DNA of 49,491 nucleotides, taken from Moorena sp. SS36440bin_2. GTDB taxonomy: Bacteria > Cyanobacteriota > Cyanobacteriia > Cyanobacteriales > Coleofasciculaceae. The notes below the pieces were generated by a model that searched no databases, was not told the origin of the DNA, and saw only the letters and a list, made by a program, of their open reading frames with translations. The translations under genes were made by a program, and so were the position numbers. The stretch is from positions 1 through 49,491 of the forward strand of contig WTKN01000378.1 in assembly GCA_011524395.1 (NCBI GenBank), in the 5' to 3' direction. Of this stretch, positions 14,784 through 21,169 are shown in pieces. Within the stretch, counting starts at the first letter, position 1, and every line of letters starts with the position of its first letter.

Positions 14784-15106
14784 CTCAATACCGCGAGTAC
14801 GTTCAAACATTACTGAACGAGTACGCCAAGGATGATGTTTCAAATGATGAGGTGGAAGTACAACTCATTTTTGACACTTTTCGGGATCATTACCAGTGGA
14901 TGAATGTGGGTTGGGAAGATTGTAATCGGATTTACCGTTCTATCGTTCATTTAGATATCAAAGACGGAAAAATTTGGCTCCAGCAAAATCTCACAGATCT
15001 CAATCCTGCTGAGGACTTAGTTGAGATGGGCGTTCCAAGAGAGGATATTGTCTTGGGTTTACAAGCTCCTTACAAACGCCAGTACACTGATTATGGTGTC
15101 GCTTGA
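14771..15106 (+). CDS. xisI: XisI family protein
   Basis: Protein of 111 residues, the usual length of XisI (fdxN-element excision-controlling factor I). Typical features are MEKVAQYREYVQTLLNEYA, then VEVQLIFDTFRDHYQWMNVGW and the C-terminal VEMGVPREDIVLGLQAPYKR. XisH/XisI pairs were first linked to excision of the nif-region fdxN element in Anabaena, but they occur in many copies in cyanobacteria without that element. XisH is predicted to have an endonuclease-like fold, so this gene has probably lost its partner. It starts at the ATG 14771 inside the xisH tail. Confidence 0.92.
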   Translation: MEKVAQYREYVQTLLNEYAKDDVSNDEVEVQLIFDTFRDHYQWMNVGWEDCNRIYRSIVHLDIKDGKIWLQQNLTDLNPAEDLVEMGVPREDIVLGLQAPYKRQYTDYGVA

Positions 15107-15338
15107 GATAGTAGCGGTGCCATCTAAAGTATTGGGTCTAACAGGAGACTTCGCCGCAGTTATCAGACAAAAGGCTTCAATGCAAAAAGCTTACAGTTGT
15201 ACTGTTGAGGTATAAAATCCAGGTATAGCTATAGTTGGAGTTGTTTTAACTAACCGTTTGGTATAGTAAGTCAGGAAAATCTTGATTTTTTATACAGTAA
15301 TATATAAAAAATGGGAATATCTGAAGATAATCAAAACA

Positions 15339-16433
15339 ATGAATACTGGAAAACAAACGGTATTTATCAATGAAAATAAAAAGCTTACTTTGCTTTATCC
15401 TCAGACTATATGCAGTCAATACAAAATAAATGAAAAAGCTAAAAAAAGTATTATAGAAAAAGTAAAAATATTGCAACAATACTTTCAATCACCAAAAAAT
15501 TATAAAGAGATGGGCAATCTCCTTACTCTATTTGAAAGTAACGCTAGGGTTGAAAACGCCGATCAAATATCAGCAATTGAATTATTGAATTCAGAGGGTA
15601 AAGTTAAATCGGTTAAGCAACATAAAATTGAAGAATTCAACAATTACTTTGATATCCAGTATGTTTTAACAGAATGGCCAGAATATATTTTATTATATAG
15701 TGCTTTAACCGGATATGTCACATTTCTGGAACTGACTAAAAACAGCGCTAATAAATGGACTTTAGGTAAATTAGATACATTGGTCAACCCGGAATTTAAG
15801 CCATTGCTAATTTGGAAGAAATTCCATTGGATATTCTTGATATTTGTCCAGGGTTTGATCCTCTGCTTGCTGCGGTTTGAAAAAGCGATAAAAATGAATA
15901 ATTTAAATCAGATAAAACTAGAGTTAGAAACAGCCTCAAATCTAATGATTGGAGCCGGATCAGTAATGAAATTAGCGGGAAGTTACAGTAGAAAAGAATA
16001 TCAAGAGCAAATTCTCCCCACAATGAAGCCGCCTAATATGAAAATCGAGGGATTTAGTGGGCTAATGTCTTCGGACCATGCCTATCTAGTGACATTATGG
16101 AAGCAGAACAAAAAAAACTTCCAAAATTTACCGCTATCCCTTCAACCTCAGTACGAAACATTCTTACTAGCATATAAAATTATGGCATCATCCCATAGGA
16201 ATATTTGTAGCAAGTTTGGCGGTGGAGAAGTAGGCGGGAGTGTTAAGCATCCAACGAAAAATGCTTTGTTAGCTCTGGAGAAGATTGTTCAAGCTCGCTG
16301 GCAGATGATAAATCCCACTCATCAATCAGTACATGAATGGATGGAAATGATGAATGATCCACGTGAATTGGTCCAAACTGGATTTAAAAATCATCTTCAG
16401 CTTCTCTTAAGGACTTTTAACCTAGAACTATAG
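15339..16433 (+). CDS. possible heme-dependent dioxygenase-superfamily protein (IDO/PrnB-like)
   Basis: Protein of 364 residues from the ATG 15339; the frame extends 19 codons upstream. By eye it resembles the helical heme fold of indoleamine 2,3-dioxygenase and PrnB. A helix ending LELETASNLMIGAGS aligns with the IDO helix containing IASCLEKAL. IEGFSGLMSSDH occupies the place of GGSAGQSS. A candidate proximal heme ligand is H286 in YKIMASSHRNICSKF, followed by GGGEVGG (294-300), comparable to SYHLQIVTKY and GTGG in IDO. IDO oxidises tryptophan; PrnB rearranges it in pyrrolnitrin synthesis. Residues about 154-180 look frame-scrambled (see findings), so activity is doubtful. It is AT-rich, unlike the lyase downstream. 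Family assignment is tentative. Confidence 0.5.
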   Translation: MNTGKQTVFINENKKLTLLYPQTICSQYKINEKAKKSIIEKVKILQQYFQSPKNYKEMGNLLTLFESNARVENADQISAIELLNSEGKVKSVKQHKIEEFNNYFDIQYVLTEWPEYILLYSALTGYVTFLELTKNSANKWTLGKLDTLVNPEFKPLLIWKKFHWIFLIFVQGLILCLLRFEKAIKMNNLNQIKLELETASNLMIGAGSVMKLAGSYSRKEYQEQILPTMKPPNMKIEGFSGLMSSDHAYLVTLWKQNKKNFQNLPLSLQPQYETFLLAYKIMASSHRNICSKFGGGEVGGSVKHPTKNALLALEKIVQARWQMINPTHQSVHEWMEMMNDPRELVQTGFKNHLQLLLRTFNLEL

Positions 16434-17022
16434 TGAGCCTAAATGAGTTGCCCAATCCCTCCAGATGTTCATTTTTTGGCAACGGGATCCTAAGAGTGAT
16501 TTATAAAGTAAATCTTAAGACCCCTCCATCATAAATAACCGAAGATATTATCACTACAACTATAGCAGAAGTCAGAAGTCAGAAGTCAGAAGTCAGAAGT
16601 CAGAAGTCAAACTCTTGCGCTTACTTAGGTTTGAGACTTTTGTCATGTCCGCGCCTGCCCTGGCGACTGCTATAACAACTGACAACTCAGATGCTGGGCA
16701 ATGGCTACCCTAGCAACTCACAACTAACAACTGACAATTGGGTAATGATGCTCTATGGATTCGATGAGTGGGTTGATGACACTGCACAGCTAATAGCCTA
16801 TTTTCAGAATGAAATAGCCCTGATCAAAGATATGTATTTTTTAATTAATAGCTGAAATCAATTTATAGTATAGTTTTCAGCCTAGATGTAGGCATGGGTA
16901 TTCCCGTTCGAATTTACAAATCTTAAATCTAGTTAAATCTAATTAAATCTAAAATTTTAATCGCACCACGGCAGATCATATTACACTGATGGAGTCGAAA
17001 TACTAAAAACGGAGAATTGAAT
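16434..17022. repeat. intergenic region with AGAAGTC heptamer array and dispersed repeat
   Basis: 16567-16608 holds six copies of AGAAGTC. 16616-16674 is a segment (ttgtcatgtcc ... cctggcgactgctata) that recurs in reverse complement at 38600-38660, again beside heptamers. Near 16920-16955 there is a loose 10-bp repeat (ttaaatcta). GGAG at 17011-17014 is the ribosome-binding site of the next gene. No gene is seen. Confidence 0.75.
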
Positions 17023-17505
17023 ATGTCAGATATGGATCGAGACGGTCGGCTGTGGCTGATGAAAGACTTGTATGGGATGAAAACAGTCCCACCAGCTCAG
17101 GACTATAATGCCTTTGTCAAAGCGGTTCTGATCTGTGCAAAAGGAGATGGCGTCCTGACACCAGAAGAAAGAAACTGGGTTGTTGGTCGTGCTGCCTGTT
17201 ATTATACAAATAACGAGTATGAAGTGGCAAAAAATTACCCAGCAGATGAGGATTTACTTGAGGTTCTCGCCCAGGCTCCTAAACTAAACCAAAGCGGTCG
17301 TAGAGTGATTATTTATGTTGCAATTCAGGCTTGTGCTGCTGATGGATCTTACCATCCGGATGAACGGGCATCAGTCCACAAAATGGCCAAATATCTTGGC
17401 ATTGAAGAAGATGTCGTTAATCAGATTGAGGAATATTGCATCGAGGAAGCCAAGATGCGAGAAAAACGGATTGCCCTAATGTTTACCGAAGGCATCCCTT
17501 ATTAG
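17023..17505 (+). CDS. TerB-like (tellurite-resistance TerB fold) protein
   Basis: Protein of 160 residues from the ATG 17023, with GGAG eight bases upstream. Two similar acidic motifs, KGDGVLTPEERNWVVG (about 41-56) and AADGSYHPDERASVHKMA (about 106-123), are separated by helices, as in the TerB/DjlA-N helical fold in which such acidic residues bind metal. There is no signal peptide, so it is probably cytosolic. It lies 155 bp before a methyltransferase and a MIO lyase on the same strand, with a strong hairpin between. TerB-fold proteins can act in stress or as accessory proteins; no tellurite cluster is present here. Confidence 0.7.
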   Translation: MSDMDRDGRLWLMKDLYGMKTVPPAQDYNAFVKAVLICAKGDGVLTPEERNWVVGRAACYYTNNEYEVAKNYPADEDLLEVLAQAPKLNQSGRRVIIYVAIQACAADGSYHPDERASVHKMAKYLGIEEDVVNQIEEYCIEEAKMREKRIALMFTEGIPY

Positions 17506-17526
17506 ACTTGTTGTTAATGGAGAGTA

Positions 17527-17564
17527 ATTATGTTGTTGAATCAGTTACATTTCAACAACATAAT
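17527..17564 (+). promoter_or_regulatory. perfect 14-bp stem-loop between TerB-like gene and methyltransferase gene
   Basis: ATTATGTTGTTGAA (17527-17540) is followed by a 10-nt loop and its exact reverse complement (17551-17564). No T-run follows, so it is not a classical terminator. It could stabilise or process the upstream mRNA, or be a palindromic operator for the downstream genes. Confidence 0.6.
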
Positions 17565-17663
17565 CGCCCTTAGATGAAAACAGATATTAATGTCGGGTAG
17601 AATGACAGTTAAATAAGATTAATTTAAAAAGCTCCAAGGCTTGCTATATAAGCATTGAAACCA

Positions 17664-18338
17664 ATGACGATCTCAAGAGTGCTCGAACCAGAAGTAATGG
17701 ATACTTGGGAAGATGCCGTTGAGTACGACTCGATGGACTTCACTGAGGTAAACGGAGCCTTTGCCCAACTTGCGGTAGAATTAGGAACCCAAGCGGGTTT
17801 AGTCCTGGATGTGGGTACCGGAACGAGCCGCATTCCGATTATAATTGCCCAGATGCGCCCTCAGTGGCAGATATGGGCGATCGACCTCTCGGAAAATATG
17901 CTCAAAGTAGGCGCACAGAATGTAGAGGATGCCGGGTTACAAGAACAGATTAAACTGGAATGGGTTGATGGCAAGCAGATGCCTTATCCAGATAGCATGT
18001 TTGACATGGTAATTTCCAATAGCATCGTCCATCACCTGCCAGATCCCCTGCCATTTTTCCGGGAAGTCAAGCGACTGCTAAAACCAGGAGGCGGCATTTT
18101 GCTGCGGGATTTAATCCGCCCCGCTGATGTGGCGACAATGGATGCTTTAGTTGCTAGGATATCAGGGGAGTACAATCAGTATCAGACCCAGTTATTTCGG
18201 GATTCTCTCCATGCTGCTTTGACTCTGGACGAGGTAAACCAGATGGTGTTAGACGCTGGGTTATCAGGGGTGAGGGTTTATCAATCTTCGGATATACATT
18301 GGACAGCGGAACGTCCTGACCAGCAGATGCTTTTGTAG
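17664..18338 (+). CDS. class I SAM-dependent methyltransferase
   Basis: Protein of 224 residues from the ATG 17664 (a TTG three codons earlier is less likely). The Rossmann-type motifs are in order: motif I VLDVGTGTSRIPI (about 52-64), acidic motif II WAIDLSEN, motif III region DGKQMPYPDSMFDMVIS, then HHLPDPLPFFREVKRLLKPG and ILLRDLIRP. It is of the Methyltransf_11/25 type, typical of small-molecule methylation. It sits 52 bp ahead of the MIO lyase and probably shares its transcript, so it may methylate the lyase product or a precursor (inference). Its G+C is visibly higher than that of the upstream heme-enzyme-like gene. Confidence 0.85.
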   Translation: MTISRVLEPEVMDTWEDAVEYDSMDFTEVNGAFAQLAVELGTQAGLVLDVGTGTSRIPIIIAQMRPQWQIWAIDLSENMLKVGAQNVEDAGLQEQIKLEWVDGKQMPYPDSMFDMVISNSIVHHLPDPLPFFREVKRLLKPGGGILLRDLIRPADVATMDALVARISGEYNQYQTQLFRDSLHAALTLDEVNQMVLDAGLSGVRVYQSSDIHWTAERPDQQMLL

Positions 18339-18390
18339 AGAGTCCCCAGAGTGGATCTTGATAATTATTTCCTTCTGTGAAGCGACCGTT

Positions 18391-20061
18391 ATGAAATTGG
18401 GAATTTTTGAATCGAATAGCGATCGCAGTGTTATTGTAGGGGAGCGGCACCTTTCGATCGAAGACGTGGTCAGCGTGGCTCGTTATGGAGCGCAGACGCA
18501 CCTGAGCCAAAATCCCAAGATTTGGCAGGGCGTGCAAGCCTCGGTTGACTATATCAGCGAGGCGCTGGCTGCTAAGGAGCCCATTTATGGGGTGACCACT
18601 GGCTTCGGGGGAATGGCAAATACTGTAATTTCCCCCGAAAAGGCTACTGAGTTGCAAAACAATATTCTATGGTTTCACAAAGCCGGGGCCGGAAAGCGCT
18701 TGCCCTCTGAGGCTGTCCGAGCGGCGATGCTGTTGCGGATTAACTCTCATTTGCATGGAGCATCGGGCATCCGCCGGGAACTGATCGAACGCATGCAAAT
18801 ATTTCTCAATGCTGGCGTGACGCCCTACGTCTACGAATTGGGTTCAATTGGAGCCAGCGGCGATCTCACCCCCTTGACGGACATTACCGGGGCCTTAGTC
18901 GGTGTGGATCCTGCATTCAAAGTGGACTTCAACGGCGAGGAGATGTCTTCGGTTGAAGCCCTCAAGCGGCTGAACTTGCCTCGGTTGAGCCTGGGGCCGA
19001 AAGAAGGACTGGCAATGGTGAACGGAACCTCCGTGATGACAGGCATGGCGGCCCTGTGTGTGAGCGAGGCGCAAGTGTTGCTAGCCCTGGCCATGGGAAC
19101 CCATGCCCTGCTGATTCAAGGGTTAGGGGGTACGAATCAGTCGTTTCATCCGTTTATTCACGCCCTTAAGCCCCACAAGGGTCAGATTTGGGCGGCAGCG
19201 GAAATGCTACAATTGCTTTTCGGGTCGAGTTTGATCCGGGACGAGTTGTCCGGCGGGGCCTGCCACCAGGGCAATGCCCCGATCCAAGACCGCTATTCCC
19301 TGCGCTGCTTGCCCCAGTACCTCGGACCAATCGTCGATGGCTTGAAAGAAATTACCGAGCAAATCGAAGTCGAAATGAATTCGGTTACGGATAATCCTCT
19401 AATTGACACAGAGGGTAATACCAGCTATCACGGCGGGAATTTCCTGGGTCAGTACGTGGGCATGGGGATGGATCGCTTGCGCCATGTTCTGGGTTTGATG
19501 GCTAAGCATCTGGACGCGCAAATTGCCTTGGTAGTAGCACCGGAATTTAGTAATGGACTTTCCCCTTCTTTGGTGGGCAATTCTGCAAATCTTGTCAATA
19601 TGGGCCTCAAGGCGCTGCAAATTACTGGTAACTCGATTATGCCCCTGTTGACGTTTTATGGAAATTCCCTGGTCGATCGCTTCCCGACTCATGCCGAACA
19701 ATTCAATCAAAATATCAACAGTCAAGGGTTTGGCTCGACTAATTTAACCCGGCAATCCCTGGAACTGTTCGGGCAATATATGGCTGTTTCCTTGATGTTT
19801 GGGGTGCAAGCCGTTGACCTGCGAACGTCCATAGTGGCTGGTCATTACGACGCGCGGGAGTGTTTGTCCCCGGAGACGATTCCTCTGTACGAAGCTGTGC
19901 GGGAAGTGGTAGGCAGGCCCCCGAGTGTTGAACGTCCTTATATCTGGAACGATCGCGAACAATTTCTCGATATGCACATTGCCCGGTTGGCCAACGATTT
20001 GACCTCCGGCAGTCGGCTTGCCCGGGCGGCTAACAATATTTTGTCCCGCTTGAACAGTTAA
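18391..20061 (+). CDS. MIO-type aromatic amino acid ammonia-lyase or aminomutase (PAL-like)
   Basis: Protein of 556 residues from the ATG 18391. It closely follows the known cyanobacterial phenylalanine ammonia-lyases along its whole length. The MIO cofactor forms from A155-S156-G157 in GSIGASGDLTPL. The catalytic Tyr (Y66) is in IYGVTTGFGG, and further hallmarks are NGTSVMTG, IQDRYSLRCLPQYLGP, SVTDNPLID and FPTHAEQFNQNINSQG. PALs convert Phe to cinnamate and ammonia; relatives use Tyr or His, or make beta-amino acids. The substrate-selectivity pair is F95-H96, where cyanobacterial PAL has Phe-Leu. The gene is clearly G+C-richer than its neighbours, suggesting transfer. Lyase versus mutase cannot be decided by reading. 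Confidence 0.93.
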   Translation: MKLGIFESNSDRSVIVGERHLSIEDVVSVARYGAQTHLSQNPKIWQGVQASVDYISEALAAKEPIYGVTTGFGGMANTVISPEKATELQNNILWFHKAGAGKRLPSEAVRAAMLLRINSHLHGASGIRRELIERMQIFLNAGVTPYVYELGSIGASGDLTPLTDITGALVGVDPAFKVDFNGEEMSSVEALKRLNLPRLSLGPKEGLAMVNGTSVMTGMAALCVSEAQVLLALAMGTHALLIQGLGGTNQSFHPFIHALKPHKGQIWAAAEMLQLLFGSSLIRDELSGGACHQGNAPIQDRYSLRCLPQYLGPIVDGLKEITEQIEVEMNSVTDNPLIDTEGNTSYHGGNFLGQYVGMGMDRLRHVLGLMAKHLDAQIALVVAPEFSNGLSPSLVGNSANLVNMGLKALQITGNSIMPLLTFYGNSLVDRFPTHAEQFNQNINSQGFGSTNLTRQSLELFGQYMAVSLMFGVQAVDLRTSIVAGHYDARECLSPETIPLYEAVREVVGRPPSVERPYIWNDREQFLDMHIARLANDLTSGSRLARAANNILSRLNS

Positions 20062-20140
20062 TTACGTTTGGAGTTGCTCTGAAGATGATGCCGTTGGCGA
20101 TTAGGCGAAACTCCAACAGTGCGATCATTCGATCTTGTAG

Positions 20141-20244
20141 TGGCGTGGCACAGCTAAAATAGTGCAATAGTTTTTTCCGCTAAACCCTTGTTAAAAGTAG
20201 ATTATGGTATTTTTCTAAAGCAACATTTAAGGTGTGCCACGCCA
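20141..20244. mobile_element. 104-bp MITE-like element with terminal inverted repeats
   Basis: TGGCGTGGCACA (20141-20152) and its exact reverse complement (20233-20244) bound a 104-bp non-coding segment; over the first 20 bp the ends match at 18 positions. GTAG flanks both sides (20137-20140 and 20245-20248), as expected for a 4-bp target duplication. It lies between the MIO lyase and the convergent DNA methylase gene. Confidence 0.7.
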
Positions 20245-20287
20245 GTAGGATGCGTTAGTGATAGCGTAACCCAGTATTAATTGAGGC

Positions 20288-21169
20288 TTAGTTTGCTAAA
20301 AACCAATCCAAATTTCGGCCAATCAGCAATTCGGTCTTCTCAGCATGATGAGTGTTTTTCATAGCAATAGGTTGTACAGCAAATTCATAGCCACTTGCTA
20401 GATCACTTATTTCTTCTGTATTGTCATAGCTCATCAAAAAATCCCCTTCCAATTTGCTAGCAAGTTTAAAGACAGCTTCATGATCAACTGCTGAATAGCG
20501 ATAGAGCCTGCGCCCAGCTTTTAGATAAGGTGGATCAATGAAATAAATAGCATCTTTTCGGTCATAATTTGGCTCACAAACCTCAAACCCATCCCCGGCA
20601 ATAAATTGAATTTTTGTCCGGATTTTATCAATAGAAAGTATACGCTTTTTCAAGGTTTCAGGATACCAGCGTGAGGTGATTCCTTTACCATTTTCCCCAT
20701 TTTTCATCAAGCTAGCACCATCAGCCAGAATTCCACCACGATTAACGCGATTTTTCACTACTGTTGCGAAAGCCAGAGATTCCAGGGATTCATTAGCAGA
20801 ATCAATAGCTTGCTTGGCACTCTGTGGAGTTAGATGAAAGTTGACAATAGTTTCCGCTAGCCATTCGGCACCACCACCTAGAATCACCTGCCACACAGCA
20901 GCAAGCCCTTCATCTTTTTCTACCATTGTCACTCTACCTACTAAATTCTCGAAAGCAGCAGTAAGACTGACTATACCTCCACCAGCAAACGGTTCAAAAA
21001 GTTCCTTATCTGTACCACCTTTATTATACAACCATTGGCGAATTTGGGGTATTAGCCAAGTTTTCCCACCAGCATAGTGAAATGGGCTACGTTGGGGGAC
21101 ACTAGCTACATTTATGACTTTTTTAGAACTGGTGATAGAGGGAGTATTAAATAGCTCAAGTTGAGTCAT
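20288..21169 (-). CDS. DNA adenine (N6) methyltransferase, Dam/DpnII-M type
   Basis: Protein of 293 residues from the ATG 21169, preceded by AAGGTG. The N-terminal SAM site reads SPFHYAGGKTWLIPQI, with FEPFAGGGIVSLTAAF shortly after; the catalytic motif DPPY is in IYFIDPPYLKAGRRLY. The order of motifs is that of the alpha class of N6-adenine methylases (MethyltransfD12). The target site cannot be read from sequence. It could be a solitary housekeeping or phage-derived enzyme, or the protective methylase of the adjacent ATPase/nuclease genes, which lie about 130 bp upstream on the same strand. Confidence 0.9.
   Translation of the reverse strand: MTQLELFNTPSITSSKKVINVASVPQRSPFHYAGGKTWLIPQIRQWLYNKGGTDKELFEPFAGGGIVSLTAAFENLVGRVTMVEKDEGLAAVWQVILGGGAEWLAETIVNFHLTPQSAKQAIDSANESLESLAFATVVKNRVNRGGILADGASLMKNGENGKGITSRWYPETLKKRILSIDKIRTKIQFIAGDGFEVCEPNYDRKDAIYFIDPPYLKAGRRLYRYSAVDHEAVFKLASKLEGDFLMSYDNTEEISDLASGYEFAVQPIAMKNTHHAEKTELLIGRNLDWFLAN

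What the first reader, a model, noticed from the sequence alone, without database searches (positions are those of the whole stretch)
17023..20061. TerB-like protein, SAM methyltransferase and PAL-like MIO lyase in one plus-strand group
Seen: three same-strand genes with 155-bp and 52-bp gaps and no unrelated gene between. Known: MIO enzymes make cinnamate-type acids or beta-amino acids used as natural-product building blocks; class I methyltransferases often decorate them. The TerB-fold partner is unexpected for such a pathway. Inference: a small biosynthetic unit, possibly with the heme-enzyme-like gene just upstream, that does not match a pathway I know.
Basis: partly seen in the sequence, partly recalled or inferred. 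Interest (0 to 1): 0.72.

Follow-up and report, generated by a model that had tools for sequence, protein, structure and literature searches.

The report
Tyrosine-to-cinnamate gene island in Moorena
A marine cyanobacterium carries an inserted block of four genes (a heme tyrosine-hydroxylase relative, a small TerB-like protein, a methyltransferase and an ammonia-lyase) that look like a short route from tyrosine to a decorated cinnamic acid, a combination for which no described pathway was found.

Summary
The three genes are real and intact: TerB-like 17023-17505, class I methyltransferase 17664-18338, MIO lyase 18391-20061. The genome is Moorena-like. All four lie in a block of about 4.9 kb that three other genomes of the genus lack at that site. 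Only Moorena sp. SIO3H5, of 80 named loci kept, has the trio. Pairs recur, though. TerB lies upstream of a lyase twice in Microseira, on separate branches of both gene trees. Methyltransferases of this family sit in or beside the heme-enzyme operon in 5 of 39 other loci, against 0 of 78 control loci of the same order. The lyase is of CybB (furanolide) type; its pocket pair is F-H, where the sister strain has Y-H, the pair of Herpetosiphon. No furanolide partner gene is adjacent, and none close was found for the two searched genome-wide. The methyltransferase model matches the aromatic C-methyltransferases CouO and NovO best. Best reading: tyrosine is ring-methylated and/or hydroxylated and deaminated to a substituted cinnamate, TerB being an unexplained accessory. 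The chemistry is inferred; there are no transcript or enzyme data.

The parts
15339..16433 (+). SfmD-like histidyl-heme aromatic oxygenase (HDAO), 364 aa from ATG (a TTG start lies at 15282)
   Evidence: phmmer to SfmD 6vdp 9.5e-9; profile of 14 sequences to SfmD 2.4e-33 and to tyrosine hydroxylase 7kqr 8e-5; predicted fold best matches SfmD, Z 14.8; W159, H163, H247, H286, C290 invariant in 14 sequences
16566..16678 (.). CAGAAGT heptamer array (16566-16609) and overlapping dispersed repeat (about 16573-16678) between HDAO and TerB
   Evidence: many copies of the 16573-16678 stretch in three other genomes of the genus
17023..17505 (+). TerB-like protein (COG3793), 160 aa
   Evidence: Pfam TerB above its cut-off; PDB 2ou3 4e-34 over the whole protein
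17664..18338 (+). class I SAM methyltransferase, 224 aa, best structural match to aromatic C-methyltransferases CouO/NovO
18391..20061 (+). MIO ammonia-lyase of the cyanobacterial PAL/CybB type, pocket pair F95-H96
15199..20052 (.). presence/absence block (about 4.9 kb) absent at this site from three other genomes of the genus
   Evidence: homology to those genomes stops at 15072-15198 and resumes at 20296 (window) or, seen through SIO3H5, at the 3' end of the lyase

Best explanation
The block at 15339-20061 is a small accessory pathway in Moorena that turns L-tyrosine into a ring-decorated cinnamic acid. The heme enzyme hydroxylates the tyrosine ring next to the phenol (as SfmD and LmbB2 do). 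The methyltransferase methylates the ring carbon, or less likely the new catechol oxygen. The MIO lyase removes ammonia. Likely products are 3,4-dihydroxy-5-methyl-cinnamate, or caffeate/ferulate if the methyltransferase is an O-methylator. TerB is an accessory protein of such enzymes whose action is not known; I think it binds or stabilises the enzyme or its product. SHOWN: gene identities, catalytic motifs, block presence/absence, and recurrence of the TerB-lyase and HDAO-methyltransferase pairs. INFERRED: substrates, order of steps, product, that the four proteins act together, and any TerB role.
For: HDAO: SfmD and tyrosine hydroxylase profile hits, SfmD the top structure; WxxxH, [DEN]H and HxxxC kept in the window and all 39 relatives examined. 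Relatives lie beside or in a row with PLP decarboxylases, NRPS-type genes, an O-methyltransferase and a tyrosinase, as expected for tyrosine/DOPA chemistry. Methyltransferase: CouO Z 25.6 and NovO Z 24.7, next 21.9. Same-family methyltransferases lie in or beside the HDAO operon in 5 of 39 other loci; against 0 of 78 lyase and TerB regions of the same order p is 0.003, or 0.03 with three loci of one family counted once. Lyase: PAL/CybB type, catalytic residues present, purifying selection; sister-strain pair Y-H as in the six Herpetosiphonaceae sequences, and an H. aurantiacus TAL supplies a tyrosine-derived phenylpropanoid pathway in an engineered host (PMC9474286, passages). TerB-lyase adjacency also twice in Microseira wollei, on separate branches of both trees. 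All four genes share one block absent from three genomes of the genus.
Against: HDAO ends 583-589 bp before TerB with a dispersed repeat between, so it may be a separate transcript. HDAO has 13 amino-acid-changing against 2 silent codon differences from SIO3H5 over 160 codons, unlike the lyase; this hints at relaxed or changed selection, or an artefact at that contig's edge. The methyltransferase ortholog is a one-copy gene in 140 of 291 genomes; of 20 such regions fetched, none has TerB or a lyase and one has HDAO. It does not co-occur with HDAO genome-wide (12 of 33 HDAO genomes, p 0.2). No HDAO locus outside Moorena has TerB or a lyase (0 of 39). The lyase pair is F-H in the window strain; in RsTAL the H89F change turned the enzyme to phenylalanine (PMC9002059, passage). 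SfmM2, the saframycin tyrosine C-methyltransferase, does not accept p-coumarate (PMC13109631, passages); I recall it as a larger type of enzyme and did not compare it. The genome has no CoA-ligase of this kind above 31% identity and no KASIII-like partner above 27%, so the fate of the acid is open.
Confidence: 0.4

Rival explanations
1. The lyase works alone as a tyrosine or phenylalanine ammonia-lyase, a leftover CybB-type furanolide gene, and its neighbours are passengers of one genomic island.
For: 32 of 38 lyase regions from the order hold a CybC-like ligase, often with DAHP synthase, a TPP enzyme and a CybF-like gene; none of these is next to the window gene, and the genome has no close CybC or CybF. 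The methyltransferase ortholog is widespread and was not near a lyase in any of 20 fetched regions.
Against: Purifying selection on the lyase (8:31), separate TerB-lyase pairs and HDAO-methyltransferase pairs are not expected of passengers.
Confidence: 0.3
2. Two separate units: HDAO plus methyltransferase chemistry on tyrosine (DOPA or methyl-DOPA for an amine or peptide made elsewhere), and TerB plus lyase making cinnamate or coumarate; they merely share an island.
For: The two recurrent pairs are HDAO-methyltransferase and TerB-lyase; none of the 39 HDAO or 20 methyltransferase loci fetched contains TerB or a lyase.
Against: In the window and SIO3H5 the methyltransferase lies between TerB and the lyase with short gaps, an odd layout for two units.
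Confidence: 0.2
3. The block is a stress or metal-response island, with TerB the stress protein and the lyase a phenylpropanoid sunscreen or antioxidant step.
For: TerB family name only; in 24 of 42 TerB loci the gene has no close same-strand neighbour.
Against: Close same-strand neighbours of TerB include lyases, P450s, an FMO and an NRPS: 7 of 35 near genes in these four families against 0 of 64 far genes, p 0.0005, or 6 of 33 without the window, p 0.001. The families were chosen after the fact, and three of the seven are the lyases already counted.
Confidence: 0.08

Closest known systems
Furanolide pathway lyase CybB and maculalactone relatives (PMC13288894, passages seen)
   Same: Same type of lyase in cyanobacteria, same reaction type (Tyr or Phe to coumarate or cinnamate)
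   Different: No CybC-, CybE-, CybF- or DAHP-synthase-like gene found next to it (SIO3H5, window); CybC- and CybF-like proteins absent from the genome above 31% and 27% identity; HDAO, methyltransferase and TerB instead. The CybB sequence itself was not compared
Saframycin precursor enzymes SfmD with SfmM2
   Same: A heme enzyme of the SfmD family together with a candidate aromatic methyltransferase
   Different: Methyltransferase is of CouO/NovO shape (224 aa); an ammonia-lyase follows; no NRPS at the locus; no sequence of SfmM2 was compared
LmbB2-type tyrosine hydroxylases (lincomycin; PMC3851162, passages seen)
   Same: Same superfamily of His-ligated heme enzymes; LmbB2 makes DOPA from tyrosine
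   Different: Weaker profile match to the tyrosine hydroxylase structure than to SfmD (8e-5 against 2e-33)
CouO / NovO aromatic C-methyltransferases (PMC5289526, passages seen)
   Same: Best structural match over 210-212 residues; an invariant His pair H123-H124 in the family sits where CouO should have His120-Arg121, by my reading of spacing
   Different: 20% identity; the second residue would be His, not Arg; no tool printed that alignment
2OU3, a solved TerB-like protein (COG3793; from Nostoc punctiforme as I recall)
   Same: Same length and family, 4e-34 over the whole protein
   Different: No function known to me; its gene context was not seen

Membership tests
MIO aromatic amino acid ammonia-lyase | ASG tripeptide and two catalytic tyrosines | tested here: met
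   GASGD at 155-157, Y66, Y302; Pfam 1.4e-145
MIO aromatic amino acid ammonia-lyase | Lyase and not aminomutase activity; substrate | not testable with these tools
   Pocket pair F-H; Y-H in SIO3H5; F-L in the two PAL structures 2nyf and 2nyn
Furanolide biosynthesis cluster | CoA ligase CybC, TPP enzyme CybE and synthase CybF with the lyase | tested here: not met
   None adjacent in SIO3H5 or among the window ORFs read; best own-genome match 31% (CybC) and 27% (CybF); CybE not searched genome-wide
Histidyl-heme aromatic oxygenase (SfmD/LmbB2) | Fold and conserved heme-site His and HxxxC | tested here: met
   residue roles recalled, positions from the alignment
Histidyl-heme aromatic oxygenase (SfmD/LmbB2) | Heme content and tyrosine hydroxylation | not testable with these tools
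   needs protein
CouO/NovO aromatic C-methyltransferase | Same fold as the closest structural match | tested here: met
   Z 25.6, rmsd 2.5, 212 residues
CouO/NovO aromatic C-methyltransferase | Catalytic His-Arg pair | tested here: inconclusive
   Family-invariant H123-H124; equivalence to His120-Arg121 inferred from spacing only
TerB / COG3793 | Profile match over the domain | tested here: met
   Pfam TerB above cut-off, residues 77-135; 2ou3 4e-34
Tellurite resistance operon | Other ter genes as neighbours | tested here: not met
   None among the seven proteins between 12742 and 21208 scanned against Pfam

The most novel reading that the evidence does not exclude
COG3793 TerB-like proteins are dedicated accessory proteins of aromatic tailoring enzymes in cyanobacteria, and in Moorena one of them joins an SfmD-type hydroxylase, a C-methyltransferase and an ammonia-lyase into a previously undescribed route from tyrosine to a ring-methylated catecholic cinnamate.
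Probability: 0.25. Interest if true: 0.72.

Novelty: new variant of a known kind. Interest (0 to 1): 0.52.

Why it matters
It would link two enzyme logics so far known apart, saframycin-type tyrosine ring tailoring and the cinnamate route, in a genus known (recalled) for bioactive compounds, and would give TerB-like proteins of cyanobacteria a first testable role in small-molecule biosynthesis. The Y-to-F change in the lyase pocket between two close strains is a natural experiment on substrate choice.

Tried and rejected
Conserved trio in other genomes: looked for in 38 lyase regions from the order and 80 named loci; found only in Moorena sp. SIO3H5. 35 of the 115 relatives confirmed were not kept by the tool and were not examined.

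Furanolide pathway in the window genome: rejected for CybC and CybF; CybE was not searched.

Second lyase in the own genome: none. RNA regulator at the locus: none at Rfam's thresholds in 15000-20400. Promoter- and terminator-like patterns: no clear excess (16 promoter-like against 10.4 +/- 3.6; 3 terminator-like against 5.6 +/- 2.4; all three on the minus strand).

HDAO and methyltransferase co-distribution across genomes: tested, negative (12 of 33 HDAO genomes have it, against 128 of 258 others, p 0.2).

HDAO Foldseek search: no match under E 0.001; the ranking (tyrosine hydroxylase, then IDO) agreed with the sequence result, and VIA-align put SfmD first.

Direct view of the CouO alignment: tried with a profile and a fragment; CouO was not among the printed alignments, so the catalytic-residue match stays an inference.

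Papers: the searches listed no paper that I recognised as describing this gene set; 'Moorena' with 'ammonia lyase' gave 0 papers. The library lacks most subscription journals. Jendresen et al. 2015 was not read (named in PMC9474286). Of seven papers I saw matched passages only.

Full report
OBSERVATION. The three plus-strand genes exist as described, with intact frames and clear family matches. The lyase ATG is at 18391 and the methyltransferase ATG at 17664. The first gap is then 158 bp, not 155.

WHERE IT IS. The window is contig C308 of a 7.75 Mb, 441-contig genome. The closest named locus is L180, Moorena sp. SIO3H5, at 98-100% protein identity for the trio; the genus name is inferred from it. 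Three other genomes that the tool places in the same genus (G065, G147, G173) lack lyase, methyltransferase and HDAO at the thresholds used. At the same site, between an XisI gene and a D12-class DNA methylase gene, they carry other DNA. In two of them this includes DNA matching a choloylglycine-hydrolase-like gene of SIO3H5, and in G173 that gene looks interrupted. SIO3H5 has the trio and then that hydrolase; the window has the trio without it. The join lies at the very end of the lyase frame (window 20052-20054). So HDAO, TerB, methyltransferase and lyase are inside one presence/absence block of about 4.9 kb. Whether it was gained or lost is not settled. Its left edge is not seen in SIO3H5, whose contig starts inside HDAO.

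THE LYASE. Its close cyanobacterial relatives are 63-73% identical. Of 38 regions fetched from the order, 32 hold a CybC-like AMP ligase, nearly always just downstream, often with DAHP synthase, a TPP enzyme and a KASIII-like gene. These resemble the furanolide genes described for cyanobacterin and maculalactone (PMC13288894, passages). Two pocket classes dominate: Y-H in 48 and F-L in 44 of 118 lyase sequences, named and unnamed sets together with overlaps. F-L is the pair in the PAL structures 2nyf (N. punctiforme) and 2nyn (A. variabilis, as I recall). Y-H is the pair in all six Herpetosiphonaceae sequences. An H. aurantiacus TAL supplies a phenylpropanoid pathway in an engineered host (PMC9474286, passages); which of the two DSM 785 copies that is was not checked. 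The window has F-H, one amino acid from the Y-H of SIO3H5 (TTT against TAT). F-H also occurs in two distant bacteria (L230, L231). On the tree the two Moorena lyases form a long separate branch; deeper forks are partly weak. The genome holds no CybF-like protein above 27% and no CybC-like protein above 31% identity.

THE HEME ENZYME. The ORF upstream had no Pfam or NCBIfam match. phmmer against PDB gives SfmD, 9.5e-9. A profile of 14 sequences gives SfmD 2.4e-33, tyrosine hydroxylase 7kqr 8e-5 and 8r2s 0.002. The model (pLDDT 73, pTM 0.80) matches SfmD first (Z 14.8, 226 residues, 3.5 A), then IDO, MarE and TDO. Helical folds can reach such Z by chance, but ranking and sequence agree. WxxxH, [DEN]H and HxxxC are kept in the window and all 39 relatives examined. 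In one search H247 faces SfmD residue 274, and H286/C290 face 313/317; that these are heme-site residues of SfmD is recalled. LmbB2 makes DOPA from tyrosine and is said to have cyanobacterial orthologs (PMC3851162, passages). SfmD and TyrH work with H2O2, or when reduced with O2 (PMC11791213, passages). Matches occur in 40 of 388 genomes, the window's own included. Of 39 other loci fetched, 24 have the enzyme split into two neighbouring, often overlapping frames. Genes nearby include PLP decarboxylases, NRPS-type genes, a CmlA-type hydroxylase, an aminotransferase, a tyrosinase and an O-methyltransferase; one representative of each was identified.

THE METHYLTRANSFERASE. A one-copy ortholog is in 140 of 291 genomes of the order at E 1e-30. 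Of 20 regions fetched, none has TerB or a lyase and one (L165) has HDAO. Its general role is unknown. The model (pLDDT 94) matches CouO (Z 25.6) and NovO (Z 24.7) above all others (21.9 and less). Both are aromatic C-methyltransferases for which a His base is proposed (PMC5289526, passages). Family members lie beside HDAO in L165 (67-68% identical), L315, L316 and L320 (28-29%), and in the same gene row in L306 (30%). That is 5 of 39 HDAO loci. Against 0 of 78 lyase and TerB regions of the same order p is 0.003, or 0.03 with the three loci of one family counted once. A wider control of 119 loci, partly not cyanobacterial, gives 0.0007 and 0.013. Genome-wide co-occurrence with HDAO is absent (12 of 33).

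TERB. The protein belongs to a multi-copy family: 23 of 291 genomes at E 1e-20, three such copies in this genome. In Microseira wollei NIES-4236 a TerB match ends 0.26 and 0.47 kb before two different lyase matches (L199, L220); in the second a 112-aa ORF of doubtful reality lies between. The three lyases lie on different branches, and so do the three TerBs (three changes forced, 0% of 200 bootstrap trees with one). With 4 to 12 copies in 10.6 Mb, two such placements by chance have a probability of about 4e-8 to 3e-7 under random placement. Other same-strand neighbours are an NRPS with an O-methyltransferase (L141), an FMO (L142), an O-methyltransferase (L144) and a P450 (L147). In 24 of 42 TerB loci there is no close same-strand neighbour.

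MECHANISM. I read the block as tyrosine ring hydroxylation, ring methylation and deamination, giving a decorated cinnamate. The order may follow saframycin (methylate, then hydroxylate), with the lyase last. SfmM2, the saframycin tyrosine C-methyltransferase, accepts tyrosine and DOPA and not p-coumarate (PMC13109631, passages), which fits methylation before deamination if this enzyme behaves alike. Against this stand the 583-bp gap with a repeat between HDAO and TerB, the 13:2 codon pattern in HDAO, the general spread of the methyltransferase and the absence of TerB and lyase from the 39 other HDAO loci. No expression or activity data were available.

VERDICT. The finding is real. No paper on the four-gene set was recognised. 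Each enzyme is of a known kind; the combination is a new variant. The most surprising part, TerB with aromatic-tailoring genes, is a recurrent association without a mechanism.

Noticed in passing
L303-L327 except L307 and L319, and L165 (24 of 39 HDAO loci): The SfmD-like heme enzyme is split in two neighbouring frames (about 157 + 190 aa, often overlapping by a few bases); the heme-site motifs are in the second, and the split falls near the low-confidence linker (residues 137-150) of the fused window form.
   Followed up: partly
L303, L308, L310, L312, L313, L317, L322-L326: Recurrent cyanobacterial gene row with HDAO, in varying completeness: CmlA-type beta-hydroxylase fused to a reductase domain, methyltransferase, class III aminotransferase, sometimes tyrosinase and thioesterase (families identified in L303 only).
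   Followed up: no
L328, L329, L331, L335 and L305, L330, L332-L334, L336, L338: HDAO directly beside PLP-dependent decarboxylase genes (two clusters, identified in L328 and L334), as for dopamine- or tyramine-type products; L328, L329 and L331 also have a formylglycine-generating-enzyme-like gene.
   Followed up: no
window 20055-20295 against L180 4106-5720: A choloylglycine-hydrolase-like gene present in SIO3H5, and as matching DNA in two other genomes of the genus, is missing in the window right after the lyase.
   Followed up: partly
window 16573-16678: A dispersed repeat of about 106 bp with many near-identical copies in genomes of this genus, overlapping a CAGAAGT heptamer array.
   Followed up: no
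L211, L218 (Crocosphaera sp. MO_133.B10, Symploca sp. SIO3C6): CybB-like lyases with a DAHP synthase and a distant methyltransferase downstream but no CybC-, E- or F-like match of 100 bits in the fetched flanks.
   Followed up: no
G000:C354:7605-10609 (L147): Second TerB of this genome directly downstream of a P450, next to an R2K ATP-grasp gene.
   Followed up: no
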